From contig OV050030.1 in NCBI GenBank assembly GCA_920105625.2, forward strand, positions 68,725,807 through 68,789,806: a stretch of 64,000 nt of DNA, read 5' to 3'. The position numbers and the translations under genes are program-made. Below are positions 39,193 to 63,195 of this stretch, piece after piece. The notes under the pieces are model-generated. The model was not told the origin of the DNA. It made no database searches and saw nothing but the letters and a program-made list of their open reading frames with translations. This DNA comes from Clusia tigrina (Eukaryota; Arthropoda; Insecta; Diptera; Clusiidae). The stretch's first letter is position 1. Every line of letters begins with the position of its first letter.

Positions 39193-39985
39193 TATATTTT
39201 ATTTTTGAAGTTCTTTCCCCTTTTTTTTTCTTTTTTAAATTTCATTTTATTTTTATTTGTTCTTAAACCTGGAGGGTCAAAGGTAAAGTTATAAACTAAT
39301 ATCTGTATGCAACTGATATAATTTTAATGTATTCTTTTATTTTTTCTTATTTTACTGCTTTTCCCGTATACAGCGGATCCAGTTTGAAATAAAAAAACGG
39401 TTTATATTATTACAGTTCTTTTAACCTGAAGGTTCCCTTAGGAATCGCAGAGTTTTTAACTTGGGGTTGTGTGGCTTTTATAGCTTTAATTTTTGTATAT
39501 TTTTTTCGAGAACTGGAGTGCCTGGCTTTCAGGTTCGCAGTTGTGTAGATACATCAGTTGTATCAATATTTTATTTTATTACCACTAATAATACCGTGTG
39601 AAGCTTTTATTATAATTTCAGTACGTTTGACTTACATGCACCAGATTGTTGCCCATATGATAGTGTTGATGTGCTCTATACCGTAAGCGTTGTTCGCAAT
39701 GATGTATTTCCTGCTGGTTGCTGTTGCAGTCTTGTCTTTGCCACTGGTTACTGTTGCCGTGTTGTCTCTGCACTGGTTACTGTTGCCGTGTAGTCTCTGC
39801 TTCTGGTTACTGTTGGCGTGTTGTCTCTGCCTTTCTTGTTCTCCCAGCGACTATAAGGAGTCAAAACTGTGATTTTGTGGAGAATAACACTGATATGTTC
39901 TCAGTGTTAGATTTTCGTTAGTGATGTTCCGTCTCTGCTGACTCTTTTTCCCACTTGTGAACTATTATGTGAATTTATGTTAGTG
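39193..39985. other. Noncoding stretch with a 30-bp tandem repeat
   Basis: AT-rich, poly-T and poly-A runs at 39205-39400, then four units of about 30 bp at 39714-39831. The small open frames here come from the repeat. No homology recognised. Confidence 0.6.
39714..39831. repeat. Four-unit tandem repeat, about 30 bp per unit
   Basis: Units start ctggttgctg (39714), ctggttactg (39744, 39773, 39803) and contain ttgccgtgttgtctctgc with a few changes. Spacing is 30, 29 and 30. Confidence 0.85.
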
Positions 39986-39987
39986 TA

Positions 39988-40937
39988 CGAGGTGTGATAG
40001 AAAAATAACCGTTATTGTGTGATCAAAAAATGAAGTATTTATTTATTCATCAACAACTATCTTGTCCCCTTCAAAGTAATTCCCCTCAGATATAATACAC
40101 TTATGCCAGCGTTTTTTCCAATCCTCGAAAAACTTCTAAAACGTTTTTTTTGGTATCGCCAACAGCTCCTGTTCCGATTTTTCTTTTATCTCCTCAATCG
40201 TAGCAAAACGCTTTCCTTTCATCGGTGTCTTCAGTTTTGGAAAAAGGAAAAAGTCAGCGAGGGCCAAGTCCTGTGAATACGGTGGGTGAGGCATGATAAC
40301 GATTTTGTTTTTGTCCAAAAACAGCTCCTGAGCGATGTCCATGCGACGTTGTTTTTGCTCAAAATTTAGCAATTTTGGAACAATCTTCGCTGCCGCACGT
40401 TTCATGCCTAAAACATCCGTAAAAATTGTTTGGCATGAGCCGAACGATATGCCAACATCATCAGCAACCTCTCTGATAGTGATTCGACGATTATCCAAAA
40501 TCATTTTCTTCACTGCGTCAATGTTTTCATCGGTTGTCGGATGTGCTCGGGCGACCAGGACTAGCATCGTCATTGACATCTTCTCGGCCTTCCTCAAACC
40601 GGTTATACCACAATTGAACTTGTGTTCTGCTCATAGTAGACTCGCCAAAGGCCACAGTCAACATTTCAAATGTCCTTGCGCATTTAATTTCATTTTTTAC
40701 ACAAAACTGAATACAGTTTCTTTGATCCATTTTTTCGAATAGTACAAAATCGAAGAGCACACCAAAACACGACTAACCTTTTTATCTGTCAAAAACAAAC
40801 TGACAATCCAAAATGGGTGGTATTGCCAACATATATAACAGACATGTGTACCAACATAACAGAAAAAAAATGCGAAGATCGAACATACGTAACTCACGAA
40901 AAGATGAAAATAACGGTTATTTTTTGATCACAACTCG
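39988..40937 (-). mobile_element. mariner element, internally deleted
   Basis: Inverted repeats of about 29 bp (cgaggtgtgat..ataaccgttatt; the other end has cgagttgtgat) with TA at 39986-39987 and 40938-40939. Size 950 bp, against about 1.3 kb for complete mariners. It contains a minus-strand transposase of mariner type; the wording fits the rosa subfamily known from fruit flies (moderate confidence). Confidence 0.93.
40136..40730 (-). pseudogene. mariner transposase, deleted
   Basis: 40730-40527 starts MDQRNCIQFCVKNEIKCART, the N-terminal HTH, then NRFEEGREDVNDDASPGRPS. After one shift, 40597-40136 has the second HTH (RRITIREVADDVGISFGSC) and MKRAAAKIVPKLL, then jumps from DIAQELF to LDKNKIVIMPHPPYS. 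The first and second catalytic Asp (the GDE and HDNA boxes) are therefore deleted; the third Asp region PPYSQDLALADFFLF remains. Non-functional. Confidence 0.9.
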
Positions 40938-41049
40938 TATCTAGAATATTGATATGCCGTCAGTATTAGAGCTTTTATTGATGTTCCCTCAATAATAGGT
41001 TCTTATATTAAGCACACTGTTTCACATTATCACTTTCTTAACCATTAGT

Positions 41050-41340
41050 CGGTACATCGATGTTTTTTCTATAATCTTTGCTATCTGGAGTATTAACCTT
41101 AAAGACTTCGTTGCTTAGCAATTTAATTGTATATTATTTTTTGCGATGGGTGCCAACTGTTTGATTCAACATATTATATCCCTTGATACCTGATATCAAT
41201 GGTGGTGGTGGTGGCTTCCTAACTATGGTAGGCTTTTTTTTAGCTTTTATTTGAGCAAGTTGATTTGCATATGAGCTAGTTGTTGGTTCATCATCAATTA
41301 GTCAACCTCTGGTGAGGATTCCGCTTTTGGTTTTTTATTT
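41050..41340 (-). pseudogene. jockey-like ORF1 N-terminal piece
   Basis: Minus strand 41290-41050 reads KAKKKPTIVRKPPPPPLIS, then GIKGYNMLNQTV, TIKLLSNEVFKVNTPDSKDY. The order of a basic/proline segment, then an RRM-like start, is that of the N-terminal part of jockey/BS/X-type ORF1. It may be the other half of the ORF1 at 37300-37880, split by the two DNA transposons and 39193-39985. Confidence 0.55.
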
Positions 41341-41594
41341 CTATTTTTCTTATTCTTAATTTAATTTTATTTTAATCATACAAGAAGTTATAAAAACTTA
41401 TGCTGTACATTGGACTTAGCCACAATTGTATCTTAAATTAAAAACTTAAAGTTAAATTAATTCTATTGACAATGATTAGAAAACAACAAACTAATATAAC
41501 AAAAAACAAGAAAAATATATATTAAAATAAAAACAAAAGATAAAAAAAGAAAGAGGGTAGTAGAACTAGGAAGGAAAAGAGAAGAAATACAGCG
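41341..41594 (-). other. AT-rich 3' tail region of the CR1-like remnant
   Basis: Poly-T/TTTA-rich on the plus strand, as expected for the 3' UTR and tail of a minus-strand non-LTR element. No coding signal. Confidence 0.5.
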
Positions 41595-42520
41595 TCAAGT
41601 GCTACTACGAAAATAGAGATAAATAAGATGCTTGAAGTTGTTGTGGCTCACAATATTTTTTAAATCATTAGGTACGGAGCTCCATAGTCTAGTGGTGCCG
41701 ACGAAAAACATTTTAGCGAAGTTTCGGAACATAAACAGGCTGAAGCGCAACTTGTCATAAAGGTATAGCGGCGCCTTAGAGTATATTAATTTATGCATAT
41801 ATATACAATTTCTTGCATTTAAATAGCTCTCAATATCGCAACCCAGAACCATTTTACTCCAATATGAGATATGGTCAAATTTGCGCAAGCCATACACATA
41901 ACGAGTAGCATTATTGAATGACACTCGCAGTTTATGTAAAGACCGAGAGTCCAAACCACTATACACCACCGCAGAGTAGGTAATAATAGGCACAAGCAAT
42001 TGCACAACCAACATGAGCCTGGTTTCAACGAGAGTAAAGCGAGCAGACATCCTCAAACAGCGCAGAGTCATATACATTCTGCAAACCACATGGTTGATAT
42101 GATCCGAGCAAATCAATGACGAGTTCAAATGAAACCCAAGCACAAAAGTCTTGTTGACAAGTGTAATTCTTTTGAACTGTAAAGAATGCCTTTTAAACAA
42201 GCTCTTCTTCATCTGCTTGATATTCGAAGGCCTGAGCAGACTGATCACCAATTATTTTCTCATTGGTTGCCAGCTGTGACCTTAGATTTTTATTTTCATG
42301 TTTAAGTTGAGTTTGTTGCATAAAGTTCTTAGCTCTCACATGTTTTCCACTAAAGGGTCATTATATTCGCCACTAATGTGGGTCATATTTTGACAGTGTG
42401 CCATTAAAATATTTCGTAGTATACATCGGCAGTAGAAATGATAGCTTTTTTGACGCTCTCTAAATCGGAGCTTGCTGCTCCAAATTTCGTTGCTCTCAGC
42501 TCTTTATTTGTTTTTCGCCG
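41595..42520 (-). mobile_element. CR1/L2/jockey-group non-LTR remnant, arm 1
   Basis: The minus strand has an open 218-codon stretch (42251-41595) from the RT thumb to the C-terminus: LGFHLNSSLICSDHI, LVPIITYSAVVYSGLD, SFNNATRYVYGLRKFDHIS, WSSVPNDLKNIVSHNNFK. Just upstream (42520-42255) the frame reads an ORF1-like coiled coil ([32 protein letters not shown]). Endonuclease and most of the RT are thus deleted, fusing ORF1 to the ORF2 end. The mirror is at 51405-52304. The exact clade is uncertain. Confidence 0.75.
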
Positions 42521-42530
42521 CATAGCGAGA

Positions 42531-43087
<557 letters not shown>

Positions 43088-43190
43088 TGGCGATCCTGCC
43101 ACACCGATCCTGATTTTCTGACCAGACCGATCCTGAATTTTTTTGACCACACCAATGCAATTTTCCTTCAATGCCGATCCTGACAAACTG
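43088..43190 (+). other. Primer-site region with four repeats of a PBS-like core
   Basis: tggcgatcctgcc follows the LTR and resembles a degenerate tRNA-Arg site (tggcgaccgtg). The core cgatcctg recurs at 43091, 43105, 43128 and 43175. Confidence 0.6.
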
Positions 43191-43398
43191 GCACTTCTGA
43201 TGTCGAGTCCTGCCGAAATTAATTAATGTATTAAATTGATGTCCACAATTACGCAAACCTTGGCTATGGTGCATGAGGACATCATATGCAATTTCCACAT
43301 CCAGAAGGAAGACTCCAAGCTACAATATCATGCCCACCTCAAAAAACAGTAATAAGACAACGTAAAATCGACCAAAGTTCTTTTCAAGCCAATCCAAA

Positions 43399-43773
43399 AT
43401 GCAGTGCGATCTCATCAAAATGAATAATTGTGAGAGCACACCGAACAAAAAAAATTTACGCGTCAATTTTATTGAGAGAAGTTCTAAAGTGAAGGAGCGA
43501 CAGGAGAAGTTCCTAACCGCCAAATATGGTTTCCATCAGATGAGTGTAATACGAAAGCTACTGGCTTTGGAGATGTGGGTGTATGATGAACTGCAGAAAC
43601 TTTTTGATCCACCGGGCGAGGCAATCGAGGTAGACAACGATGAAATTTTAGATATGAACACAGATGACATAAAAATATCTCATATCATTAAGTTATTGTC
43701 AGTCTGTAAGCTACCACAATCGGAAATATCGAAATTTAGCAGCGATCTTTTGGAGCGTGCTAATACGCTGTAA
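43399..43773 (+). CDS. Captured PPP1R14/CPI-17-type protein phosphatase 1 inhibitor (retrocopy), 124 aa
   Basis: An intact intronless frame inside element C. It resembles the PP1_inhibitor family (CPI-17, PHI-1, KEPI; in insects called regulatory subunit 14B). Residues 31-53 (VKERQEKFLTAKYGFHQM and on) match the family's R-x-T-x-K-Y core: Thr40-Ala-Lys-Tyr aligns with Thr38 of human CPI-17, whose phosphorylation turns the protein into a myosin-phosphatase inhibitor. The helical part follows: LALEMWVYDELQKLF (55-69), acidic DNDEILDMNTDD, and ISKFSSDLLERANTL at the end. No retroelement protein has this pattern. Met8 is an alternative start. It would be transcribed from the 5' LTR. Whether it is expressed is unknown. 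The family call rests on my reading; a profile search is decisive. Confidence 0.72.
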   Translation: MQCDLIKMNNCESTPNKKNLRVNFIERSSKVKERQEKFLTAKYGFHQMSVIRKLLALEMWVYDELQKLFDPPGEAIEVDNDEILDMNTDDIKISHIIKLLSVCKLPQSEISKFSSDLLERANTL

Positions 43774-44300
43774 ACATTTAACTATTTTTGTATCTAATTC
43801 TACTAAACTATTTTTGTATTTAATATTAAAAAAAATATCTTTGACGTTAGTTGTAATTGTTCCTAAATTTAAAAAAAAAAATAATAACATAGGAAATGGT
43901 TATAATTTTAGCTTTACATAATTTTGTCTTTACAAACAGAGTAATCGAAATTTCTTACAAATAATTTATTTTAATATTATAGTTAAGCAACTTAATACAT
44001 TTAAATATTAGTTAAGAATCTTTAATATTTTTATATACGTGACTTTTAATTTAATTTAAAGACCATATATAATATATATGTTATTATTATAAATATATTA
44101 ATACGCATCAGAAACTAATTGATAATTCATATACATATGTAATGAAAGAAACATTAAACAAAAGCATTAGGAAATCAAGAAAAATTATAAAATTAGTTGC
44201 AAAATGTTGCAAAAACAACAAAATTAATGAAATTTTGGGCTTAATTTTTAATAGTAAATTCACAAAAACAAAATTTAAGTTTTGAAAAGAAAATAATGTT
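43774..44300 (+). other. Captured 3' UTR of the host transcript
   Basis: About 530 bp, very AT-rich, without retroelement coding similarity, between the stop codon of the PP1-inhibitor frame and the RNase H remnant. Its extent and AT-rich, stop-filled nature suggest a host 3' UTR copied with the coding part. No clear poly(A) run marks its end, as expected if template switching occurred before the tail. Confidence 0.55.
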
Positions 44301-44672
44301 TAGTTAAACCAGTAATTGAAAGAATTATTAGCCATTCATTGGGCTATTATTTATTTTCGACCCTACTTGTTTGGAACGAAATTCACAGTAGTAACAGATC
44401 ACAGACCACTAGTATCACTGTTTACACACAACAACCACTCATTTAGAATAACTTGTATCCGACTAGACTTGATGGAATAGGACTTTAAAATTATATACAA
44501 ACAGGGTAAAATTAATACAAACATAGATGCTTTGTCAAGAATAGAAATAAATTCCGACACATTAAAGGCAATGATACCTACAGTTATGGCAATCACAAGA
44601 AGCCTGAAGAAAAAAAAAACAGATGAAATCACTGAACAACCAAACAAGAGGAGCGCGCGCCTCTATATATAG
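44301..44672 (+). pseudogene. RNase H remnant of element C
   Basis: The frame resumes in the middle of RNase H: PVIE, then LLAIHWAIIYFRPYLFGTKF, VVTDHRPLVSLF, LDLME and the end INTNIDALSRIEI. A one-base break occurs after PVIER, and a stop replaces Trp/Tyr after DLME. The first RNase H catalytic Asp (TDAS) and everything upstream in pol are missing. Confidence 0.8.
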
Positions 44673-46067
44673 AACAGTACATCTTTATCGGATATTAGAA
44701 ATTTAAAACAGTTAAAGTGCAAAATTTTATAAGGGGATGAGCTCGAGCGAAATACGCGTAGAAATAATAAAAGCTTGCCAAATATTAGAGTCGACTATAA
44801 AAATATACTGATAGAGTTAAGCGATAATTCTGACTTAGTCCTCGGTATGGTCATGAGGAAGTTTACTCAATTTTTGATCAGTCATGGAATCGACAAGATC
44901 GCTCTTTGAAAAGAGGATACTTTGCTCGATCTTATTAATGAAGATAATTTAAAAGCCTTATATAAGAAAATATATATTGAGAATTAAGCTAAAGGGCGGC
45001 AAACTCCTGCTATAATTTTATTTGTGCCCCAACGTAATATAAATGATATAAATGAGCAAAAGAAACTCATACATGATAACCATTGCACGCAAATATCCGG
45101 ACATCCTGGAGTAAGAAGAACGTTATTAAAGTTAAAACAAAAATACATATGGAAAAGTATGACAAAAATGGTAAAGGCATATATAAATAACTGCGAGATA
45201 TGTTGCAAAAAACAAAACAACAAAATACATAAGAGGAAAGATGGTCATTATAGACACCCCATCGACAAGTTTCCAAATAGTAGAAATGGAGACAGTAGGA
45301 CCACTCCGTATTTCAAATGGATATAAATACATTTTAACGCTTCAATGCCAACTAACTAAATATATTGAAGCATATCCAATGTATACAAAAGAATCTTTAG
45401 AAGTTGCCAATACTTTACTAGAAAAATTCATACTAAAGTATGGAGGTTTTCATACAATAAAGACAGATATGGGTAGAGAATTCGTGAACCAGGTATTTGA
45501 CCATATGAGCAAAACGTTAAATTTTCAACATAAAACATCCACCCCTTACCATCACCAAACACTAGCATAGAAAGAAATCATAGAGTTCTCAATGAATACA
45601 TACGCACCTCAACAGAAGAACAGGAATGGGAAAAGGGTTTACCTTACTACGTTTTCTCATATAATACCACACCACACGTTGACACAGGCTACTCACCTTT
45701 CGAACTCATATTTGGAAAATTGCCAAACATTCTAAAAGATAAACAAGTGATCAAAACAGTTAGTCCGATCAACACTGAAGAATACCTAAATGAATTAAAA
45801 AACAGACTAGAAAATGCAAAGGACACTGCAAGACTTATACTCCAAAAATCAAAGGAGAAAAGAAAAATAAACTACGACATAGGAACGAATAGTTCATATT
45901 TTAATATAGGAGACTTAGTAATGCTAAGAAATATGTGTAGGAAAAAGTTAGACAGCCCATACATAGGCCCGTTTAAAATTATTAATAGACTAGGTGTAAA
46001 TTCTCTAATAGATAAGAATGGAAAAGATATCTTAGTACATAATAACAATCTTAAGAAATATAAATAA
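44673..46067 (+). pseudogene. Integrase of element C (arm 1)
   Basis: 45024-45240 has the zinc finger: HPGVRRTLLKLKQKYIWKSM and NNCEICCKKQ. The core at 45241-45570 reads VEMETVGPLRIS, where the first catalytic Asp (compare QIDTVGPL in the mdg1-like element) is Glu, then IKTDMGREFVNQ (second Asp) and HHQTLA before a frame break that hides the Glu motif (ERNHRVLNEY). 45720-46067 gives the C-terminus: FNIGDLVMLRNM and LDSPYIGPFKII. Dead in both arms. 44673-45000 is a broken linker. Confidence 0.85.
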
Positions 46068-46350
46068 GAAATATGTATAAGAAAAACTACACACATTAAG
46101 AAATACAAATAAGAAATATAAATAAGAAATTGAAATAAGAAAAAACAAATAAGAAATATAAATAAGAAATTCAAATAAGAAAAATACAAATAAGAAAGAT
46201 AAATAACAAATATATATACGAAAAACTAAACACACTAAGAAATACATATAAGAAAAATACAAATAAGAAATATAAATAAGAAATATATATAAGAAAAATA
46301 CAAATAAGAAAATATAAGTAAGAAAAATATAAATAAGAAAAACTAAATAT
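46060..46350. repeat. Degenerate minisatellite after the integrase stop
   Basis: About 20 units of 11-15 bp built on aagaaatataaat / aagaaaaatacaaat. The first unit overlaps the last integrase codons (AAATATAAATAAG), which suggests the array grew from the gene end. The opposite strand gives repetitive FLIYISYLYF frames that are not genes. Confidence 0.9.
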
Positions 46351-46455
46351 AGCCATATAGCATTGTAAAACCAAAACATAGCCAAGTATATATAAAAAAA
46401 AAAAAAATTTTTTTCCGAAACAAAAAAATTTCTTTTTTTCCCGGAGGATTAGTGG
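46351..46455 (+). other. Region before the 3' LTR with polypurine-like tract
   Basis: A-rich and T-rich runs followed by cccggaggattagtgg just ahead of the LTR. The purine tract is weak. Confidence 0.5.
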
Positions 46456-46965
46456 TGTAGTGTATCATGAAAGTCATGCATACCATACGCATGCCAGCGA
46501 TCGTTAAAAGAACTAAATGCACCAGAGAAATGTGTAGTGCACGCGCAGCATGATCACACACACACTCACTCCACAGGCTCAAAGCTTTCCTCTATCCCAC
46601 AACAATGCACTTAAAATAGGTTATGTGCAATTCGAACCTCAAAGGTCGGCCGTAGGCAAGAATTGCACATTCATAATTTATTGCTGGCATATGTGAATTT
46701 GATGACACATGGGGTATTGGAAATATGGAATGAAAATGGAACATTGATTGTAACAAAATTGAATGGTAGAAATAAGTATAAAAGAGCGTAGTTGTAAAAA
46801 TAAAATTCAGCAGACCTTGGTCGCTTCACTTAAAACATTTGGCTGCCTTAAGGCGCCGATATCTAAGTGCGCAAGCTCTCGCGCAGTCAAAATATTAAAT
46901 GAGCCCATCATCTTCGTAGGGTACATTCTGAAAGGCAACTCATAATATTATTGAGTGTTTATATT

Positions 46966-46968
<3 letters not shown>
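46456..46968 (+). repeat. 3' LTR of element C (arm 1), 513 bp
   Basis: Same ends as the 5' LTR, with a 209-bp extra block at 46515-46723 and a 39-bp deletion near 46809. The inverted arm 2 enters at 46659 within the extra block. Confidence 0.9.
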
Positions 46969-47040
<72 letters not shown>

Positions 47041-47275
47041 TCGAATATAGAAAAAAATTGGAAAAATCGAAAAAAAACCTGTCGTAACACTCTGGGTGGT
47101 CAAAATAAGACGTTTTGAAGTTTCGGTTTTTGACATTTTTTTTTTAATTTTTTTTCTTTAAACCCGTACTGAGAAAATACCTTTCCAACAAAGTACAAAT
47201 CATCAAAATCGGTTCGGCCAATCTCGAGTTATGAGATTACATCCCTTCGGACACTTTCTTTTATATACATATATA
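46660..47275. other. Loop (spacer) of the palindrome
   Basis: Non-mirrored 616 bp: the rest of the arm 1 3' LTR, a TA tract (46969-47039) and 236 bp of unassigned sequence with poly-T/poly-A runs and the phrase atcaaaatcggttcggcca, a wording I associate with dispersed insect repeats. Confidence 0.8.
46969..47040. repeat. (AT)n microsatellite, inner
   Basis: About 70 bp of AT directly downstream of the 3' LTR. Element C thus sits in TA-repeat DNA on both sides. Confidence 0.95.
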
Positions 47276-47868
47276 TTGCCTACGGCCGACCTTTGAGGTT
47301 CGAATTGCACATGACCTATTTTAAGTGCATTGTTGTGGGATAGAGGAAAGCTTTGAGCCTGTGGAGTGAGTGTGTGTGTGATCATGCTGCGCGTGCACTA
47401 CACATTTCTCTGGTGCATTTAGTTCTTTTAACGATCGCTGGCATGCGTATGGTATGCATGACTTTCATGATACACTACACCACTAATCCTCCGGGAAAAA
47501 AAGAAATTTTTTTGTTTCGGAAAAAAATTTTTTTTTTTTTTTATATATACTTGGCTATGTTTTGGTTTTACAATGCTATATGGCTATATTTAGTTTTTCT
47601 TATTTATATTTTTCTTACTTATATTTTCTTATTTGTATTTTTCTTATATATATTTCTTATTTATATTTCTTATTTGTATTTTTCTTATATGTATTTCTTA
47701 GTGTGTTTAGTTTTTCTTATATATATTTGTTATTTATCTTTCTTATTTGTATTTTTCTTATTTGAATTTCTTATTTATATTTCTTATTTGTTTTTTCTTA
47801 TTTCAATTTCTTATTTATATTTCTTATTTGTATTTCTTAATGTGTGTAGTTTTTCTTATACATATTTC

Positions 47869-48940
47869 TTATTTATATTTCTTAAGATTGTTATTATGTA
47901 CTAAGATATCTTTTCCATTCTTATCTATTAGAGAATTTACACCTAGTCTATTAATAATTTTAAACGGGCCTATGTATGGGCTGTCTAACTTTTTCCTACA
48001 CATATTTCTTAGCATTACTAAGTCTCCTATATTAAAATATGAACTATTCGTTCCTATGTCGTAGTTTATTTTTCTTTTCTGCTTTGTTTTTTGGAGTATA
48101 AGTCTTGCAGTGTCTTTTGCATTTTCTAGTCTGTTTTTTAATTCATTTAGGTATTCTTCAGTGTTGATCGGACTAACTGTTTTGAGCACTTGTTTATCTG
48201 CTAGAATGTTTGGCAATTTTCCAAATATGAGTTCGAAAGGTGAGTAGCCTGTGTCAACGTGTGGTGTGGTATTATATGAGAAAACGTAGTAAGGTAAACC
48301 CTTTTCCCATTCCTGTTCTTCTGTTGAGGTGCGTATGTATTCATTGAGAACTCTATGATTTCTTTCTATGCTAGTGTTTGGTGATGGTAAGGGGTGGATG
48401 TTTTATGTTGAAAATTTAACGTTTTGCTCATATGGTCAAATACCTGGTTCACGAATTCTCTACCCATATCTGTCTTTATTGTATGAAAGCCTCCATAGTT
48501 TAGTATGAATTTTTCGTGTAAAGTATTGGCAACTTCTAAAGATTCTTTTGTATACATTGGATATGCTTCAATATATTTAGTTAGTTGGCATTGAAGCGTT
48601 AAAATGTATTTATATCCATTTGAAATACGGAGTGGTCCTACTGTCTCCATTTCTACTATTTGGAAACTTGTCGATGGGGTGTCTATAATGACCATCTTTC
48701 CTCTTATGTATTTTGTTGTTTTGTTTTTTGCAACATATCTCGCAGTTATTTATATATGCCTTTACCATTTTTGTCATACTTTTCCATATGTATTTTTGTT
48801 TTAACTTTAATAACGTTCTTCTTACTCCAGGATGTCCGGATATTTGCGTGCAATGGTTATCATGTATGAGTTTCTTTTGCTCATTTATATCATTTATATT
48901 ACGTTGGGGCACAAATAAAATTATAGCAGGAGTTTGCCGC
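47869..48940 (-). pseudogene. Integrase of element C (arm 2)
   Basis: Same breaks as arm 1, including the Asp-to-Glu change in VEMETVGPL and the frame break after HHQTLA. Differences seen: LHEKFILNYGG for LLEKFILKYGG, ILADKQVLK for ILKDKQVIK, QKTKQKRK for QKSKEKRK. Confidence 0.85.
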
Positions 48941-49264
48941 CCTTTAGCTTAATTCTCAATATATATTTTCTTATATAAGGCTTTTAAATTATCTTCATTA
49001 ATAAGATCGAGCAAAGTATCCTCTTTTCAAAGAGCGATCTTGTCGATTCCATGACTGATCAAAAATTGAGTAAACTTCCTCATGACCATACCGAGGACTA
49101 AGTCAGAATTATCGCTTAACTCTATCAGTATATTTTTATAGTCGACTCTAATATTTGGCAAGCTTTTATTATTTCTACGCGTATTTCGCTCGAGCTCATC
49201 CCCTTATAAAATTTTGCACTTTAACTGTTTTAAATTTCTAATATCCGATAAAGATGTACTGTTC

Positions 49265-49640
49265 TATATATAGAGGCGCGCGATCCTCTTGTTTGGTTGT
49301 TCAGTGATTTCATCTGTTTTTTTTTTCTTCAGGCTTCTTGTGATTGCCATAACTGTAGGTATCATTGCCTTTAATGTGTCGGAATTTATTTCTATTCTTG
49401 ACAAAGCATCTATGTTTGTATTAATTTTACCCTGTTTGTATATAATTTTAAAGTCCTATTCCATCAAGTCTAGTCGGATACAAGTTATTCTAAATGAGTG
49501 GTTGTTGTGTGTAAACAGTGATACTAGTGGTCTGTGATCTGTTACTACTGTGAATTTCGTTCCAAACAAGTAGGGTCGAAAATAAATAATAGCCCAATGA
49601 ATGGCTAATAATTCTTTCAATTACTGGTTTAACTAAACAT
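49265..49640 (-). pseudogene. RNase H remnant of element C (arm 2)
   Basis: Mirror of 44301-44672, with the same missing N-terminal half. The downstream Arg-Ser-Ala-Arg stretch differs slightly near 49280 (gcgcgatcctc versus gaggagcgcgc). Confidence 0.8.
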
Positions 49641-50163
49641 TATTTTCTTTTCAAAACTTAAATTTTGTTTTTGTGAATTTACTATTAAAAATTAAGCCCA
49701 AAATTTCATTAATTTTGTTGTTTTTGCAACATTTTGCAACTAATTTTATAATTTTTCTTGATTTCCTAATGCTTTTGTTTAATGTTTCTTTCATTACATA
49801 TGTATATGAATTATCAATTAGTTTCTGATGCGTATTAATATATTTATAATAATAACATATATATTATATATGGTCTTTAAATTAAATTAAAAGTCACGTA
49901 TATAAAAATATTAAAGATTCTTACCTAATATTTAAATGTATTAAGTTGCTTAACTATAATATTAAAATAAATTATTTGTAAGAAATTTCGATTACTCTGT
50001 TTGTAAAGACAAAATTATGTAAAGCTAAAATTATAACCATTTCCTATGTTATTATTTTTTTTTTTTAAATTTAGGAACAATTACAACTAACGTCAAAGAT
50101 ATTTTTTTTAATATTAAATACAAAAATAGTTTAGTAGAATTAGATACAAAAATAGTTAAATGT

Positions 50164-50517
50164 TTACAGCGTATTAGCACGCTCCAAAAGATCGCTGCTA
50201 AATTTCGATATTTCCGATTGTGGTAGCTTACAGACTGACAATAACTTAATGATATGAGATATTTTTATATCATCTGTGTTCATATCTAAAATTTCATCGT
50301 TGTCTACCTCGATTGCCTCGCCCGGTGGATCAAAAAGTTTCTGCAGTTCATCATACACCCACATCTCCAAAGCCAGTAGCTTTCGTATTACACTCATCTG
50401 ATGGAACTTTTCCTGTCGCTCCTTCACTTTAGAACTTCTCTCAATAAAATTGACGCGTAAATTTTTTTTGTTCGGTGTGCTCTCACAATTATTCATTTTG
50501 ATGAGATCGCACTGCAT
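50164..50517 (-). CDS. Captured PP1-inhibitor retrocopy, arm 2, with 7-codon deletion
   Basis: Same frame as 43399-43773, 117 residues. A 21-bp in-frame deletion takes RQEKF directly to HQMSV, which removes Leu-Thr-Ala-Lys-Tyr-Gly and one Phe, the segment aligned with the regulatory Thr-x-Lys-Tyr of CPI-17. It is flanked by a short direct repeat (gttcc/tttcc), pointing to slippage. The rest is unchanged. If the family call is right, this copy should not act as a phospho-dependent inhibitor. Confidence 0.68.
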   Translation of the reverse strand: MQCDLIKMNNCESTPNKKNLRVNFIERSSKVKERQEKFHQMSVIRKLLALEMWVYDELQKLFDPPGEAIEVDNDEILDMNTDDIKISHIIKLLSVCKLPQSEISKFSSDLLERANTL

Positions 50518-50828
50518 TTTGGATTGGCTTGAAAAGAACTTTGGTCGATTTTACGTTGTCTTATTACTGTTTTTTGAGGTGGGCATGAGATTGTAGCTTG
50601 GAGTCTTCCTTCTGGATGTGGAAATTGCATATGATGTCCTCATGCACCATAGCCAAGGTTTGCGTAATTGTGGACATCAATTGAATACATTAATTAATTT
50701 CGGCAGGACTCAACATCAGAAGTGCCAGTTTGTCAGGATCGGCATTGAAGGAAAAGTGCATTGGTGTGGTCAAAAAAATTCAGGATCGGTCTGGTCAGAA
50801 AATCAGGATCGGTGTGGCAGGATCGCCA

Positions 50829-51408
<580 letters not shown>

Positions 51409-52304: not shown

Positions 52305-52804
52305 NNNNNNNNNNNNNNNNNNNNNNNNNNNNNNNNNNNNNNNNNNNNNNNNNNNNNNNNNNNNNNNNNNNNNNNNNNNNNNNNNNNNNNNNNNNNNNNN
52401 NNNNNNNNNNNNNNNNNNNNNNNNNNNNNNNNNNNNNNNNNNNNNNNNNNNNNNNNNNNNNNNNNNNNNNNNNNNNNNNNNNNNNNNNNNNNNNNNNNNN
52501 NNNNNNNNNNNNNNNNNNNNNNNNNNNNNNNNNNNNNNNNNNNNNNNNNNNNNNNNNNNNNNNNNNNNNNNNNNNNNNNNNNNNNNNNNNNNNNNNNNNN
52601 NNNNNNNNNNNNNNNNNNNNNNNNNNNNNNNNNNNNNNNNNNNNNNNNNNNNNNNNNNNNNNNNNNNNNNNNNNNNNNNNNNNNNNNNNNNNNNNNNNNN
52701 NNNNNNNNNNNNNNNNNNNNNNNNNNNNNNNNNNNNNNNNNNNNNNNNNNNNNNNNNNNNNNNNNNNNNNNNNNNNNNNNNNNNNNNNNNNNNNNNNNNN
52801 NNNN
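52305..52804. other. Assembly gap (500 N)
   Basis: Exactly 500 N. The left flank matches arm 1 position 41637 and the right flank matches 25397, both in reverse complement, so the mirrored equivalent of 25398-41636 is absent here. Confidence 0.99.
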
Positions 52805-52922
52805 ATTAAAAAAAAAGAGAATCAGATAGAAAATAAAAGAACAAATATAAAAAAAGAAACAAAAGAAAAAAAAATTTAAAAATATAAAATAGAGAATGTT
52901 GAAATAGTAGTAGTATTTATAT
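52805..52922 (+). repeat. Arm 2 mirror of 25279-25397 (flank and start of copia 5' LTR)
   Basis: A-rich flank, then TGTTGAAATAGTAG, the first bases of the copia 5' LTR, then the ATAT target duplication at 52919-52922. Confidence 0.8.
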
Positions 52923-53286
52923 TGTAATGATTAGACGGGGTTTTTAAATCCATGGTTTAAAATGTAACTTTATTTACCGAACATTAATCATTAACAGTCG
53001 ACTATCTACTGTCTTGCAATTACAATGTTGGACTTATATTTATACTTAAAATAGTTGAGTCGTCGATGACATCACTGTTCGATGACTCAAGAGGTATCGA
53101 TGGATAAGGGTCAGTTATTTGAGACGTATGTGTGCTGGCTCACATTTCACGGTCGTTGACCGTCGCCTTGAATGTTGGTGTCTCATATCGAAACCACTTT
53201 GGAATGTTGCACACTTTGCAATTGTTAATTGATTTTAGGTCATTAGATTCATATGTCTGTTAGTTCAATGACCGTTATCCATGACA
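52923..53286 (-). repeat. 3' LTR of the mdg1-like element (arm 2)
   Basis: It shares the 5' LTR state at the two arm 1 variable sites but has its own two-base change (tatcgaaaccac versus tatcggcaccac). Confidence 0.9.
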
Positions 53287-53552
53287 CCTCCCCTTTTTGG
53301 GAAAAGAAAAAAAACTTTCTTTTTTTTTCTTTTATATGTATGTATATATTTATATGTATATGTATATATTATTTTTAACTTATAACAATTACATGATTGG
53401 ATAAATTATATTTTGAAGTAAGGGTTGTAATATATAAAGTTATTGGCATCGTGTGGGATGCTGGAATATAGAGCTATCGGCCGATAGTTATTTTGTAAAA
53501 AAAATAAATTATATATAGGTATATTTATTTATATTTTAATATCTATTATTTC

Positions 53553-54600
53553 TTATGCTAGTTTTAGTCTATTTTTGTGCACAATAATTGATTTAGATTT
53601 TGTGTCAATTTTGCAATTTCCAAAATGGTCAGTCTCAATCACTTTGTATGGACCTTTAAAAATACTATCTAATTTGTGATTGGTTTCATCTTTTAGGTAT
53701 ACCATATCGTTTGGCCGAATATTTTGTGGATTTACACTCTTGTCATAAATGTGTTTTGTCTTTATTTTAGCCTTTTCTAGCATTTCTGATGCTCTCTTCT
53801 GAGCTACTTGCAATTTGAATTGGAGTTCGTTTTTGTAGTCGTCAAAGTTGTATACCGGATTTATTTTTCCATTTAGTATAAAGTCGTATGGAACTGGCGC
53901 TTTTCCGAATACTAATTCGAAAGGTGTGTAACCATGAGTTGTTGATGGTGTCGTGTTGTAAGAATACGTGAAATATTTGAGCCAATGGTCCCAGTCTAAT
54001 TTGTTAGTTGAAATGTATGATCTTATGTACTCGTTAAATGTTTTATGGGATCGTTCTACTGTACCTAAAGTTTGGTGGTGATAAGGGGTGGATGTTTTTC
54101 TTTCTATTTGTAAAAGCTTGCAAATTTGGTCAAATATTTGGTTTTTATATTCGGTACCCATGTCTGTTAATATTTGTTTTATGGGTCCGTAAATTAAAAT
54201 AAGGTTCTCTACTTTTGCTTTTGCAACTATATTAGCGGACTTAGCTGGGATGGGTACTGTAATGAGAAATTTAGTTACATCACATATTATTGTGAGCGCG
54301 TATTCGTTAGAATTAAATGACTTTGGTAATGGGCCTACAGTGTCTATTTGTACACATTCAAAAGCTCTTGCGGGTGTTGGTGTTTTTATTAAAGGTTCTA
54401 GGTGATTAGTACTGGCTTTGTTTTGTTTACATTTTTGGCAGTTTTTGACATAAGACTTCACGTCTGAAGCCATGTTTTTCCAAACATAATGTCGTTGTAG
54501 TTTTGATAAGAATCGTGTGACTCCTGGGTGGCCTCCAAAAACAGGGTCATCATGATATTTTTGTAGTATTTCAAGTTTTTGCGTGGCTGAAGTGATTTCA
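53553..54600 (-). pseudogene. Integrase of the mdg1-like element (arm 2)
   Basis: Same open frame as arm 1, with all three catalytic residues. Four to five residue changes: AKAKVEN, FTYSYNTT, STTHGYT, LNGKINP. It is separated from RT by the shared frameshift near 54610. Confidence 0.9.
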
Positions 54601-57190
54601 ATAAGCTTTGGTGTTCATTGCCTTTCTTTTTAAATTCCTTTATGTCGACATATTCAAATAAATTATCATTGATTGCAATCCTTATACTCTTAAAGTTTGT
54701 TTTGCCAACTATATTTTCAAGTTTGGGAAATAATTGCGCTAGTTCAATTTTCCCATAAGCAATAAAATCTTTAGAGTTTAATTTAAATATTTTCTTTTTT
54801 CCATGGAACAAAACTAAATGTGAGGAATTTTCTAATGTTTTATTGTGCACATTTGTGGTTAATTTTAGGCATGGTAATTTTTTCACTTCTTGTAACGTAA
54901 TCGTGTTATATACTTGTTGTTGTAAGGTTTCTTTGGCTTCAATAATGTTCTTATTAGTTTGGAAATGAGTATGTTTTGATTTTGATCTAGTAATCATCTG
55001 TATGATAGCAAAGTTTTCTTCCCTAAGCTGCTTGATGTGCCCAAAATCAATGCGCGATAAAGCATCTGCACCGCAGTTATCTTTTCCTTTAATGTATTCA
55101 ATTTCGAAATCAAATTCTTCCAAATCTAGCCTCATTCTTGTTAACTTTGAGAAAGGGTTCTTCATAGCAAATAGGTATGTAAGTGGTTTATGATCACTTT
55201 TTATTAAAAATTTTGTTCCATAAATGTATGGTTTGAAGAAATTTATTGCCCAGTGTATAGCGGTAAGTTCTTGTTCTATGACCGATTTATTACTCTCCCC
55301 TTTAGTAAAGGTTCGAGAGGCGAACGCTATTGGCAATTGTTTACCATTGTGGTTCTGACTTAGAACTGCGCCACATGCAATTTTGCTTGCATCTGTAGTA
55401 ATGCAAAAAGGTTTTTTGAAATCAGGGTATTGCAATATTTTTGGGGATAGCAGACAACTTTTAAAATATTGAAATGCCTTTTCGCATTCAGGTGTCCATT
55501 CGAACTGGGATTTTTTCCTTGTTAATTTTGTTATGTGTACTGCATGATTTGCGAAATTTGGTATGAATCTTCTATAATAGTTTACAAATGCTACGAACCG
55601 CTTACATTCATCGGCGTTCGTTGGTTTTGGGTATGACAAAATCTTGTCGTATTTAGATTCATCTGGAAGAATGCCTTGGTCTGTGCATTTATGTCCTAGG
55701 AAGGTGACTTGTGAATCGTAGAATTTACACTTGTCCGGATGCAACTTAATATTTGTTTTCCTGCAGATCTCGAAAACTGATTTTAAATTTGCTAACATAT
55801 GTTTTTCGGAGCATCCAATGACTATGAGGTCGTCCATATATATAAAAGTTTTCCCCGGTCCTAGTCCAGAAAATGCAATATTCATCATCCTTTGAAAGGA
55901 GTTTGGGGCTATTTTTAATCCAAAAGGTAATCTTTTGAATCTAAAGGATCCTTGTTCGGTTGAGAATGATGTAACGTTTCTTGAATTTTCCTCAAGCTCT
56001 ATTTGATGAAAACCTGAAATCAAATCCAAACACGAAAAATACTTCGCACGACCTAACTGGTCAAGGATATCGTCAATTCTAGGCAATGGGTACTTGTCTG
56101 ATGCTAATTTTTTATTGACTTGTCTATAGTCTATTACAAGTCTCCATTTTTTCTCCGAGGAATTTGGTAAGGATTTCTTCGGGACTAAAAGTATAGGGCT
56201 ATTATACTCTGAGACTGACGGTTCAATGATATCATCTCTAAGCAGTTTTTCTATTTGTTTATTTATTTCGGCTTTATGAGTATGAGGAGTCCTATAGTTT
56301 TTTATGTAAACCGGATTATTTTCGTTTAAGTGTAATTTCTGTTTATAAAAATTGTTGTATGTACACGCATCGCTTTCTAAAGCAAATACGTCTGTGTAGT
56401 TTGAAACGAGTTGAACTAGCTTTCTCTCTATGAAGTATTGGGCAGTTGTTTGCTAATTTATTTAAAATTTTGGTTTGTCGTTCTTGATTGTTATTTTGTT
56501 TATCTATTTTAACAATGTAATAGTCATCAAGGTTTTCTGTTCTTATTGTGTTTTGCTGCAAAAAAAAAGTTGTTATCCGTTGTATTAATAATTCGAACAT
56601 ATGGGTTTTTTGTATTAACGATTGTATTTGCTATGAAAACACCATCTTCAAGTTCCTGATTGGGTATTAAGAGGTCGTTTTCCGTACTTGTTATGTCGAT
56701 TTTTCTAATGACCTCCGCTCTTGCTGGGAGTGAGAGTATTTTCCCCTGATGTGAATCCAATATTTCGATTTCTAGTTCAATATTTAAACAGTTTGGCCTA
56801 ATAATGAGCCAACTTGGACCAGAATTTTGGATGTCTAATACACAATTATAATTTTTTATGAAATCATAGCCTATTATACCATCACAAGGTAGCGGGAAAG
56901 AATCATCCACTATGTGGAAATTATGAGATATTGTTAAATTATTTATGTATAGACTTGCTTGTGTGACACCGAGTGTTTTTATTGTACCACTGCCTATACC
57001 TCTGAGGTTGAATATTTGATTTATATTTATTGTAGCATTGTCTACATGGTTTGTTTTGAAGAGACTTATATCTGATCCTGTATCTAAAAGAAATGTAGAG
57101 GTGGACTGACTTAAGGATGATTTTATTCTGATGTAATTGTTTAAACAGTGGTTTACATTTAAAATTCTGTGCTCATTTAATTCGATACAT
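54458..57190 (-). pseudogene. Protease, RT, RNase H of the mdg1-like element (arm 2)
   Basis: RT/RNase H is open from 56086 down to 54458 with only two residue changes from arm 1 (KNPFSKL, DFGHIKQ). Upstream, two extra single-base insertions not in arm 1 break the frame: a longer homopolymer near 56565 and a gagaga expansion near 56427. The protease (56910-56527 and above) keeps its end motif GIIGYDFIKNYN. Confidence 0.9.
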
Positions 57191-58412
57191 TCCCCAGTTG
57201 GGCGGACTGGGGGACATCCCCGTTTTCCGACGCCTCTGTATACCGAACGTTTCCATTATTATGTCTGCGTCCTCTATAATTATTGTTGTGTCCATAATTT
57301 CTATTTCTATTATTGTTGTCTCTGTTATCAGAGTGAGAGTCGTTACGCCGTGTATTATAATTCCGGTTCGCAGAGCTTCTTTGTCCACGATATGATCTGT
57401 TTCCACGACCCCTATATCTTACGTTGGAATTTCGATATTTGTTGATGTAATTTACTTGTAAAGTTCCTGAACTTTCCGAACTTAACTCAAGAAATTTTGT
57501 AATAGCGTCTCCTACTGTTGGGAACTGACCTGCCCTCATTAACAATTTTACCTCTTCAGATTTCGCATTTGTTTTTATTGTTTTCACTGCATGTTGAGTG
57601 GAGTAGCTTTTTGCTAGTGCAGTCGTCAAACCGTCCGCAATAAATGATTGCTCCAATTGCAATGATAAAGTTTCAATTTCTTTGGCAAAATCACTGTCGC
57701 TTTTATTATGCTGCTTTACGGTATTAAGTCTGGCTGAAATACTCTGTGGAGATTCGTATTTCACGTTTGCAAGTAATTTGCTTTTGATTGCTTGAATAGT
57801 ACTCTCGTTTGTTATCAATGTACTTGCTGAGTGAGTTAATTTCGTTTTTATTAATGAAATTGCTATGTTTTCATGGGTTTCTTTTATGGTTTCCAATAAA
57901 TCAATGGCGTTTATGAATTTATTTAAATTTTCAATTTTGCCATCAATCTCTGGAAGCAATTTCGTTGCAGTGTTAATGAACTCGATAGATGTCATATTGC
58001 TGAGATTGTTTATTTCGTTTTGTTCTTTTAATGTGTCTTCTAATGAGTCAGTATCTGTGTCAGAGCTTTCGCTGCAAAGTAATGAATGAATAGTCAGGTC
58101 AAGTAATTTTGTTATACTTGTTGGTACTTCTTGTGGTACTTGTAATTTATTAAAAAGTACTTTCAGTCTATTTTTAATGGAAGTGAAATAATTTTCGAAT
58201 TCTAGCTTATGGTCTGTGCTAAGTACCGGGTAAATTGTCCTACCTAAATTGGCAATTGTATTATGCTGACATGCAAGAATACCAATATGTTTTAGTTGAG
58301 TAATTTTGGATGGTAGGGGTGTTTTATTTAAACATTTGTACGATTTGTCAAAAGTGATCTTTATTTCATTCAATTTTCTCAAAACTTCGTCCCATGTGAT
58401 TGGTGAGGACAT
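57177..58412 (-). CDS. Gag of the mdg1-like element (arm 2), intact 411 aa
   Basis: Full-length Gag from MSSPITWDEVLRK to the stop that overlaps pol. It contains the 5-residue segment missing from arm 1 (around KVLFNKLQVPQ). The RG/RN-rich tail (RYRGRGNRSYRGQR) spans about residues 335-390. The capsid-like part is helical and no CCHC knuckle is present. Of the two copies this is the one with undamaged gag, while arm 1 has the less damaged pol. Confidence 0.9.
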   Translation of the reverse strand: MSSPITWDEVLRKLNEIKITFDKSYKCLNKTPLPSKITQLKHIGILACQHNTIANLGRTIYPVLSTDHKLEFENYFTSIKNRLKVLFNKLQVPQEVPTSITKLLDLTIHSLLCSESSDTDTDSLEDTLKEQNEINNLSNMTSIEFINTATKLLPEIDGKIENLNKFINAIDLLETIKETHENIAISLIKTKLTHSASTLITNESTIQAIKSKLLANVKYESPQSISARLNTVKQHNKSDSDFAKEIETLSLQLEQSFIADGLTTALAKSYSTQHAVKTIKTNAKSEEVKLLMRAGQFPTVGDAITKFLELSSESSGTLQVNYINKYRNSNVRYRGRGNRSYRGQRSSANRNYNTRRNDSHSDNRDNNNRNRNYGHNNNYRGRRHNNGNVRYTEASENGDVPQSAQLGNVSN

Positions 58413-58681
58413 AATAAATGAACCATACGTAATTAGGAAATTGCAACATTGATAAATTTACATGTTTTAATAAAAAGCTTAATTTTGTCTATTTGTTTAT
58501 ATTATTTTCTTGTCATTTGTGTGTTGTTGCTTGCACGGTGTTTTTAATGTGAATACTTAGTTGTAAATATTAGTTTTATATTGTGAAATTGAATTTAATA
58601 ATATTTCTTATCTTATATGATGATGATTTTTGTTGTCCTTTACGAAGCTGCAATTCTTCTCCAGATAGTTTTTCAGATAGT

Positions 58682-58951
58682 TTAGATCCTGACCGCTGGT
58701 GTTTCCACACGTTGTATCCTTCGTTTTAAATAGTTTTTGAGTGCCGAATGTATTGCCATTATTAGCACCAAGGCTCCGATCAAACACATAATTTCCCAAG
58801 GTATTGTTTTGATGTTTTGATTGTCACTTTTCTCTTGGCATTTGTCTATATATTTTACAACTTCTGTATTCTTCTGTTGCACTTCTTTTCCCACTTCATA
58901 GCCAGAAATTGCTATCATCACTATACTTATTGCTTTTTTCCACCAACTCAT
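58682..58951 (-). CDS. Small membrane-type ORF ahead of gag (arm 2)
   Basis: Predicted protein identical to the arm 1 copy at 19299-19568; single membrane span at residues 50-68. Lies between primer site and gag. Confidence 0.6.
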   Translation of the reverse strand: MSWWKKAISIVMIAISGYEVGKEVQQKNTEVVKYIDKCQEKSDNQNIKTIPWEIMCLIGALVLIMAIHSALKNYLKRRIQRVETPAVRI

Positions 58952-59151
58952 GGTGTTGATTGAAGTTTTTCATGGATATTTCTATACTTTATCTTTTTTT
59001 AAATTTTTCCACTTTTTTTATGCTTAGCAGTTCATTTTCAGCAATTGTCTATTGTAAGCAAATATTCACTGAAGTTACACTTTTTGTTATTAAAAAAATA
59101 TTTATTTTTAAAATATATTTATTTTTAGCGTCACTTATGCCACGGTCGCCA

Positions 59152-59515
59152 TGTAATGATTAGACGGGGTTTTTAAATCCATGGTTTAAAATGTAACTTT
59201 ATTTACCGAACATTAATCATTAACAGTCGACTATCTACTGTCTTGCAATTACAATGTTGGACTTATATTTATACTTAAAATAGTTGAGTCGTCGATGACA
59301 TCACTGTTCGATGACTCAAGAGGTATCGATGGATAAGGGTCAGTTATTTGAGACGTATGTGTGCTGGCTCACATTTCACGGTCGTTGACCGTCGCCTTGA
59401 ATGTTGGTGTCTCATATCGGCACCACTTTGGAATGTTGCACACTTTGCAATTGTTAATTGATTTTAGGTCATTAGATTCATATGTCTGTTAGTTCAATGA
59501 CCGTTATCCATGACA
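59152..59515 (-). repeat. 5' LTR of the mdg1-like element (arm 2)
   Basis: 364 bp; matches the arm 1 5' LTR at every variable site noted. Confidence 0.92.
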
Positions 59516-59667
59516 ATATGAGTTGGCAACAAGAATATCACTATCTCCTCTTTTATTGTTTATTATGCTATTTTCTTTTTGTTACGTTAGAATTAAGTCT
59601 TTAATATACTGTCAATGAGTTAAGTACTCTCCGCGTATGTTTGCTTCTTGGGACATCTGCTACAATA

Positions 59668-59681
59668 GGTTATGGGCCCAG
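59668..59681 (+). other. copia primer-binding site (arm 2)
   Basis: ggttatgggcccag, identical to arm 1. Confidence 0.8.
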
Positions 59682-59763
59682 GCGTGGTGTGTCCAAATGC
59701 CTGAGACGAGAAGTAAAAGTCCGAAGTTGCCCGAAAAAAATCCAGAAATTAAAATGAAAATTT

Positions 59764-60527
59764 TTGTGGATAAAGAAAAACGTGACTAAGGGATCAGCTC
59801 AACAATGGGATAGAGTGTATACGTCATTGGATGAACACAACTATGACACCTGGTGTGTCCAGATGCGCGGCGTTTTATTTTGTACAGAGTTGTGGAAAGT
59901 GGTATCAGGTAAGCTGAAGGAAATTGCGTCTAACGGTGACGAGTGGGAATTGCTGGATGAGAAGGCCCTAGCAACAATAGTTTTGACAGTCAAACCTAAT
60001 CAGCTGAACCACATTAAGAACTGCAAAACGTCAGCCGAAGTGTGGTTGAGGCTCGAGGGCATATATAAACCAAAAGGCCCTGCAATAAAGGTGACTTTAT
60101 ACAAGAGCTCGCTGAATCTCCGTATATCGGATGACGATAATATGCCAGCGGTTTTGAATGCATTTACTGACATTGTAGACAAACGAGATTATGGCCATTA
60201 AACTGTTGTCTAGTTTGCAAAAGCAGTACGAAAATTTGTTATTGCCATGGAAATGAGGGATACTTTGCCCGAGTATAGCGCACTCAAGGTCAAACTCTTA
60301 GAAGAATACGAACGCAGAGCAAAAAGAACGAAACAGTGGAAAGTAACCAAAAAGCGTATGTCGCACAGCACAACAATAATTCAACTAGAGCTAGGCACCA
60401 CAGCAACTACAATAACAACAGGCGTAAACACAACGGCAAGTGCTATAAATGCAATAAGAGAGGACACTTCGCGAACGACTGTAAAAGAAAACACACCGCG
60501 GTAAAAGAAAAAGGCAAAGAGCAGTAA
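59764..60527 (+). pseudogene. copia Gag (arm 2)
   Basis: Two frames as in arm 1: the N-terminal domain to a stop near 60201 and the nucleocapsid part with CYKCNKRGHFANDC at 60336-60527. Changes: KLKEIAS for KLKKIAS and ANDCKRK for ANDCERK. Confidence 0.85.
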
Positions 60528-60594
60528 TCTTACTCTCAAAGACGTTTTATATGTTCCTTCCTTACAAGCAAATGTCTTCTCGGTTAGCAAAAGC

Positions 60595-61258: not shown

Positions 61259-61300
61259 TCGAAATGGCCAGATCAATGTTAGTACACTAGGAGAAAAATT

Positions 61301-62448: not shown

Positions 62449-62623
62449 TATACTGCACTCTGTTCTCAAATTGGCACAGGGTAATTCAATCCCAACAATC
62501 CAGCATCAGACTGGCGTCAAACACATTATGAGGTAATTATCGAAAACTTGGCAGTTAAAATTATGGTATCGCCCCAGCAGTGTTCGAATATATGGCTACG
62601 CGTTTGCAGATTGGGCTGGTGAT

Positions 62624-63052: not shown

Positions 63053-63195
63053 ATTATGTGAATTAAAATTATATTATTTTATATAGTTTGTAGAGGATAT
63101 TCGTATTGAGACGGAGCACAGTGCTCCGTTGCCATACAAAAGTTGGACAAAAATAGAAGGAGTTGTTCGAATTTGATGAAACTTCATTTCCTAAA

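What the first reader, a model, noticed from the sequence alone, without database searches (positions are those of the whole stretch)
43250..44300. Host PP1-inhibitor (PPP1R14-type) gene captured inside an LTR retrotransposon
Seen: between the 5' LTR/primer site of element C and its RNase H remnant there is an intact intronless 124-codon frame with flanking noncoding sequence, and gag, protease and RT are gone. Known: the PPP1R14/CPI-17 family has an R-x-T-x-K-Y phosphosite core followed by a helical W/L-rich segment; the frame shows FLTAKY and LALEMWVYDELQKLF in the right order. Inference: template switching during reverse transcription copied a host mRNA (5' UTR, CDS, long 3' UTR) into the element, the way transducing retroviruses form. 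I know of LTR-mediated retroposition as a general mechanism, but not of this gene as cargo.
Basis: partly seen in the sequence, partly recalled or inferred. Interest (0 to 1): 0.9.

Follow-up and report, generated by a model that had tools for sequence, protein, structure and literature searches.

The report
Host gene riding in fly retrotransposons
In what is most likely a fly genome, an intron-free copy of the animal's own protein-phosphatase-1 inhibitor gene sits inside an LTR retrotransposon that lacks gag and reverse transcriptase, and well over a hundred matching stretches elsewhere in the genome show that the captured gene has multiplied, probably carried by the retrotransposons themselves.

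Summary
Window 43399-43773 is an intact 124-codon frame that passes Pfam PP1_inhibitor, between LTRs (42745-43087, 46456-46968) of an element without gag or RT. The parental gene is in the same genome (C3:91262-92026): four coding exons, three GT-AG introns, protein 97% identical to Drosophila. The window copy lacks all three introns and keeps host 5'UTR (from 43322) and 3'UTR (to 44114), so a spliced mRNA was captured. It is not a private event: 148 of 150 listed genome matches are neither the parental exon nor an unrelated retrocopy (window copies included; only part inspected). Fetched copies fall into two element types whose integrases are 49% identical (one pair) while cargo DNA is about 90% identical; some copies carry a shortened in-frame form. 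A cargo-less relative (L049) has RT and gag-like coding in the corresponding interval. Shared changes contain no stop codon (weak evidence), but amino acids change at a neutral rate and hit fly-conserved positions as often as chance, so host-like function is not visibly maintained. Template switching is the most likely mechanism; junction microhomology is inconclusive. The second window copy (50164-50517) is the other arm of a palindrome. New variant of a known kind.

The parts
42745..43087 (+). 5' LTR (343 nt, TG...CA); lacks about 206 nt present in the 3' LTR and has about 38 nt that the 3' LTR lacks
   Evidence: repeat families D4-D6
43088..43105 (+). primer binding site region TGGCGATCCTG..., directly after the LTR; the tRNA-Arg assignment is recalled, not tested
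   Evidence: sequence; the same start in L011, L018, L014, L049
43106..43321 (+). element leader plus a stub of uncertain origin
   Evidence: leader matches the other g1 copies; the last part is shared with g2 and basal copies; the later leader part does not match L049
43322..43398 (+). host-derived 5'UTR (77 nt before ATG)
   Evidence: 86% match to L040 1185-1261
43399..43773 (+). captured PP1-inhibitor (PPP1R14B-type) coding sequence, three introns absent; former exon joints at 43614/43615, 43689/43690, 43731/43732
43774..44114 (+). host-derived 3'UTR (about 43782-43874 within it is not matched in the parental locus)
44115..44300 (+). segment of unknown origin shared by g1 and g2 cargo elements
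44301..44672 (+). RNase H remnant, joined inside the motif NKPVIEKELLAIHW; 2 nt shorter than L049 just after the joint
44988..46067 (+). integrase remnant, several frame breaks
46456..46968 (+). 3' LTR (513 nt), followed by ATAT (possible 4-bp target duplication inside an AT repeat)
47276..51171 (-). mirror copy of the same element in the second palindrome arm, its 3' LTR truncated
50164..50517 (-). second cargo copy, 117 codons, 21-nt in-frame deletion that removes the LTAKYG loop

Best explanation
This is a processed (intron-free) copy of the host's own PPP1R14B-type PP1-inhibitor gene lying between the LTRs of a retrotransposon in place of gag and reverse transcriptase, and it likely entered by template switching during reverse transcription. 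Shown: the donor gene with its introns, a cargo-less relative of the element, intron loss, both host UTRs, LTRs, and well over a hundred further matches in the genome. Inferred: the reverse transcriptase, packaged with the host mRNA, would have switched from element RNA onto that mRNA and back inside the RNase H motif, giving a non-autonomous element mobilised in trans by relatives such as L049. Inferred: the cargo stretch later passed from one element type to another by the same kind of switch. The cargo is most likely a passenger: its frame stayed open along shared branches, but its amino acids drift at a neutral rate.
For: Pfam hit; 73% full-length identity to fly PPP1R14B; parental gene with three GT-AG introns (72, 239, 79 nt) absent from the cargo, with matching 5'UTR and 3'UTR; parental protein 97% identical to Drosophila. 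Element: LTR pairs bracketing cargo by self-comparison in 8 of 20 fetched loci (one of the 8, L010, is a mirror copy of the window element, and L014 is a tandem pair); L049 with RVT_1, RNase H and integrase domains and no cargo, matching g1 element L014 at 93% on both sides of an interval that is about 1.04 kb (cargo included) in L014 and 4.35 kb in L049. Copies: 150 of 350 candidates scored; 148 of 150 listed rows are neither the parental exon nor L030. Cargo copies form one clade against the parental gene and L030 (support 97). One g1 and one g2 integrase are 49% identical, against cargo dS 0.14 between the types.
Against: No transcript data. Junction microhomology not settled: the 5' joint differs between subfamilies, part of the g1 leader does not match L049, and 44115-44300 has no known source. 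Cargo could have entered as an ordinary retrocopy inserted into an already deleted element. No cargo-less g2 relative was seen (search did not complete). In 12 of 20 loci no bracketing LTR pair came out of the self-comparison. Most of the 148 rows were not inspected for element flanks. Copies were picked by similarity, which favours intact frames.
Confidence: 0.8

Rival explanations
1. A LINE-type machinery made a processed retrocopy that landed in an already internally deleted LTR element, which then carried it along.
For: An independent retrocopy of the same gene, L030, exists without similarity to the cargo flanks, so the mRNA has been retroposed by another route too.
Against: No poly(A) tract at the host 3' boundary 44114; the cargo interval stands for the gag-RT interval and the 3' joint lies inside the RNase H motif; L030 falls outside the cargo clade. 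Target duplications at the cargo edges were not searched for.
Confidence: 0.15
2. The cargo is a functional element gene: its product, a PP1 inhibitor, helps the element and is kept by selection.
For: No stop codon among 82 shared changes in 28 g1 and g2 copies (mirror copy left out) where 2.95-4.28 are expected, P(0) 0.014-0.052 (with the mirror copy 90 changes, P(0) 0.007-0.03); 69 of 85 full-span matches are stop-free; loop codons 36-49 hold 2 of 64 shared replacements against 7.2 expected.
Against: Shared replacement:silent changes 64:18, neutral expectation 2.6-3.4 to 1; 45 of 64 shared replacements at fly-conserved codons, expected 44.9; substitutions about as frequent in CDS as in UTR; single-copy changes are also scarce in the loop (3 of 83, expected 9.4), so that signal is not specific to shared branches. 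Indels: 0 in CDS against 3-5 in UTR per pair, but the pairs were chosen intact, so this carries little weight. Intact copies are over-represented by the search.
Confidence: 0.11
3. The frame is a separate host gene (an intronless paralogue) merely hit by LTR insertions nearby.
For: Frame intact, own UTRs.
Against: The same cargo-RNase H joint recurs in the window, L012, L014 and L017, on three contigs, with element sequence at both sides.
Confidence: 0.01

Closest known systems
LTR-mediated retroposition (Tan and coworkers, as described in passages of PMC5408686; the original was not read)
   Same: Host mRNA joined to LTR element sequence, explained by template switching in the particle; reported there for Drosophila and other animals.
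   Different: Here the chimera became a multi-copy family, and the cargo is found in two diverged element types plus a shortened form.
Bs1 of maize (passages of PMC7264820, and of PMC5408686)
   Same: LTR element that has transduced host gene sequence.
   Different: Pieces of several genes in maize; here one whole coding sequence with UTRs and over a hundred matches. [quoted passage not shown]
Pxyfem, PxyMasc retrocopies of Plutella xylostella (passages of PMC9674220)
   Same: Insect host-gene retrocopies joined to LTR gag sequence, multi-copy, tandem.
   Different: 11 partial, W-linked copies transcribed antisense that silence the parent. Here many copies span the whole coding sequence, lie in sense with the element and on several contigs; small RNAs untested.
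LTR-captured genes of rice and sorghum (abstract and outline of PMC3726574)
   Same: Host genes inside LTR elements, some neutral, some selected.
   Different: Many different genes; here one gene amplified.
PPP1R14 / CPI-17 family (abstract of PMC12347249)
   Same: Pfam PP1_inhibitor; T40-A-K-Y aligns with T-V-K-Y of CPI-17, the Thr38 site named in that abstract.
   Different: The cargo has replaced residues that are invariant or nearly so in flies.

Membership tests
PP1_inhibitor (PF05361, PPP1R14) | Pfam score above the curated cutoff | tested here: met
   24.8 vs 22.4 bits; the second window copy with 21.5 does not meet it
PP1_inhibitor (PF05361, PPP1R14) | phosphosite loop with Thr before [VA]-K-Y | tested here: met
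   LTAKYG in the window copy, absent from the 50164-50517 copy
PP1_inhibitor (PF05361, PPP1R14) | four-helix CPI-17 fold | tested here: inconclusive
   model mean pLDDT 57.4; 0 of 48 Foldseek matches at E<=0.001 and no CPI-17 chain among them; sequence match to CPI-17 chains only E 0.19-0.51
PP1_inhibitor (PF05361, PPP1R14) | inhibits PP1 when phosphorylated | not testable with these tools
   needs an enzyme assay
LTR retrotransposon | paired LTRs with TG...CA ends | tested here: met
LTR retrotransposon | primer binding site after the 5' LTR | tested here: inconclusive
   TGGCGATCCTG directly after the LTR in several copies and L049; no tRNA was compared
LTR retrotransposon | target site duplication | tested here: inconclusive
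   ATAT on both sides in L019; the window copy lies in an AT repeat; not the same flanks in L011
LTR retrotransposon | gag and RT | tested here: not met
   none recognised in the window copy or between cargo and RNase H in the nine of 20 loci printed; RT present in L049
LTR-mediated retrocopy (transduction) | introns of the parent lost | tested here: met
   three of three
LTR-mediated retrocopy (transduction) | host sequence bounded by element sequence on both sides, no poly(A) | tested here: met
   but 44115-44300 of unknown source lies between host 3'UTR and RNase H
LTR-mediated retrocopy (transduction) | microhomology at junctions | tested here: inconclusive
   joints differ among subfamilies

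The most novel reading that the evidence does not exclude
A host PP1-inhibitor gene has become an exchangeable module of LTR retrotransposons: captured once, amplified past a hundred copies, passed between element types whose integrases share only 49% identity, and held open in frame because its product, or the small RNAs its many copies seed against the parental PPP1R14B mRNA, benefits the elements.
Probability: 0.14. Interest if true: 0.88.

Novelty: new variant of a known kind. Interest (0 to 1): 0.62.

Why it matters
[quoted passage not shown] Here donor gene, cargo-less relative and over a hundred cargo matches are in one animal genome, with closer-to-parent and shortened forms, so the steps from a captured mRNA to a standing frame of retrotransposons can be followed. 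It also makes testable whether amplified host cargo silences its own parent: 86 of 351 25-mers of the parental coding sequence occur exactly in the loci fetched here.

Tried and rejected
Purifying selection on the cargo protein: tested by replacement:silent ratios and by position; not supported. My first count included the window's mirror copy, which makes private changes look shared; one search repeats it without. Host upstream exon as source of the stub before 43322: a 27-base pattern from it has 23 exact hits, none on C3 where the parental gene lies; the two hits fetched (L051, L052) carry cargo with residues 71-113 missing in frame. Source of 44115-44300: 40 of 241 candidates scored, not checked one by one for copies without cargo. 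Species identity: not determined; the parental protein is 95-97% identical to those of Drosophila, Zeugodacus and Stomoxys. Rhagoletis protein P0044 looked like a shortened cargo but reads as the ordinary protein without residues 73-97, probably an exon-skipping prediction. Structure search: uninformative, low-confidence model. Paper searches (open-access PMC only; listings, plus the papers named above) showed me no earlier report of this cargo. One search failed on a file name and was repeated.

Full report
What is there. The frame at 43399-43773 is intact, 124 codons, and passes the Pfam PP1_inhibitor cutoff. Its best relatives are PPP1R14B proteins of flies, over the full length at about 73% identity, while those fly proteins resemble each other much more. 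It lies between LTRs at 42745-43087 and 46456-46968 and is followed by RNase H and integrase remnants with broken frames. A second copy at 50164-50517 on the minus strand belongs to the other arm of a 5-kb inverted repeat and lacks 21 nt including the phosphosite loop. That repeat is part of a larger mirror structure: 52805-63195 mirrors 25397-15054, and C1:68825721-68835621 is a reverse copy of window 39954-49867 at 99.5%. The two window copies are therefore best read as one insertion duplicated, not two transpositions.

The parent. The genome (1.214 Gb, 666 contigs) holds one clear intron-bearing gene, found as a 95% match over residues 1-75. Reading L040 (C3:90001-97500) gives four coding exons with three GT-AG introns of 72, 239 and 79 nt and a 124-residue protein 97% identical to Drosophila. 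The cargo crosses all three joints without a trace of the introns. Host similarity begins 77 nt before the ATG (43322) and ends at 44114. The segment 44115-44300 is common to g1 and g2 cargo elements but has no convincing match in the parental locus as fetched, L049 or L050. Some basal copies keep host 3'UTR beyond that point (L042, L043), so the first capture probably held more of it.

The family. A DNA search with the frame scored 40 of 269 candidates and all 40 matched at 91-100%. A search with the Drosophila ironensis protein scored 150 of 350; of the 150 listed rows one is the parental exon and one the unrelated retrocopy L030, and the other 148, which include both window copies and their mirror partners, I count as cargo: 85 full-span, 69 of those without a stop. 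Many lie in tandem or duplicated regions and are not independent, and only those fetched were inspected. Twenty were fetched with flanks: 13 have the window-type leader (g1) and 7 only the stretch just before the frame (g2) (the grouping is mine). RNase H-integrase similarity to the window was detected in 15 of the 20 and a bracketing LTR pair by self-comparison in 8 of 20. Further small pieces gave copies closer to the parent (L041-L044, 6.8-9.2% different) and a form lacking residues 71-113 in frame (L043, L051, L052).

The cargo-less relative. A search with the RNase H stretch scored 40 of 540 candidates; 23 of the 40 begin at query position 8 instead of 1. Two of these were fetched. L049 has gag-like, RT, RNase H and integrase coding stretches (the frame taken as gag has no Pfam hit), no cargo, and matches g1 element L014 at 93% on both sides of an interval: about 1.04 kb in L014, with the cargo and some leader that L049 lacks, against 4.35 kb of gag-RT in L049. 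The 3' joint falls in the motif NKPVIEKELLAIHW. L050 is less complete on the 5' side.

Movement between types. The integrases of L014 (g1) and L027 (g2) are 49% identical and integrase DNA matches at about 63-67% (g2 against the window, against L049 and L050), whereas g1 and g2 cargo differs by about 10% with dS 0.14. The simplest reading is that the cargo passed from one backbone to another. LTR pairs differ by 1.5-5% in L011, L018, L019 and L028 (one piece of L027 by 6.5%, and the window pair also by large indels), while cargo and parent differ by 9.3-15.2% in g1 and g2, so the capture is probably older than these insertions.

Selection. Among 28 g1 and g2 copies (13 and 15, the window's mirror copy left out), changes present in at least two copies are 18 silent, 64 replacement, 0 stop; changes in single copies 25, 83, 3. 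The neutral replacement:silent expectation is 2.6-3.4, and 2.95-4.28 stops would be expected among the shared changes, P(0) 0.014-0.052. Shared replacements hit fly-conserved codons 45 times of 64, expected 44.9. Pairwise dN/dS is 0.96 within g1, 1.07 within g2 and 0.77 between, for the 9 and 6 stop-free full-length sequences used, two of the 9 being identical tandem copies. CDS and UTR differ about equally often. So the frame stayed open on shared branches, weakly more than chance, but the protein is not conserved as the host's is. The sample favours intact frames.

Interpretation. Template switching between element RNA and a packaged host mRNA explains intron loss, UTRs, the missing gag-RT and the joint inside pol in one step; it is inferred. 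Mobilisation in trans by relatives such as L049 is inferred. A function of the cargo is possible but the tests here favour a passenger.

Known work. LTR-mediated retroposition and Bs1 are known (passages of PMC5408686 and PMC7264820), as are silencing retrocopies in a moth (passages of PMC9674220). The amplification and exchange of one captured gene appear to be the new part, within the searches named in Tried and rejected.

Noticed in passing
window 15054-63195 and C1:68825721-68835621: Nested mirror duplications with a 500-N gap (52305-52804) and a 616-nt centre; could be a real palindrome or a haplotype misassembly.
   Followed up: partly
window 19793-24681 and 53553-58457: Another LTR-type element with long open gag and pol frames, in both mirror halves.
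   Followed up: no
L030, C3:147416512-147416883: Separate intron-free copy of the same host gene with one stop, outside the cargo clade and without similarity to cargo flanks.
   Followed up: partly
C1:365559571-365578160, C4:122959524-122963762, C2:73674460-73685962: Runs of cargo copies at about 3.7-3.9 kb spacing, as if tandem elements share LTRs (structure seen only in L014).
   Followed up: partly
L051, L052 and C1:83956080-83961340: A roughly 2.6-kb spaced run of the 27-base pattern; the two fetched pieces carry cargo lacking residues 71-113 in frame.
   Followed up: partly
window 44115-44300: Segment of unknown source between host 3'UTR and RNase H in g1 and g2 elements.
   Followed up: partly
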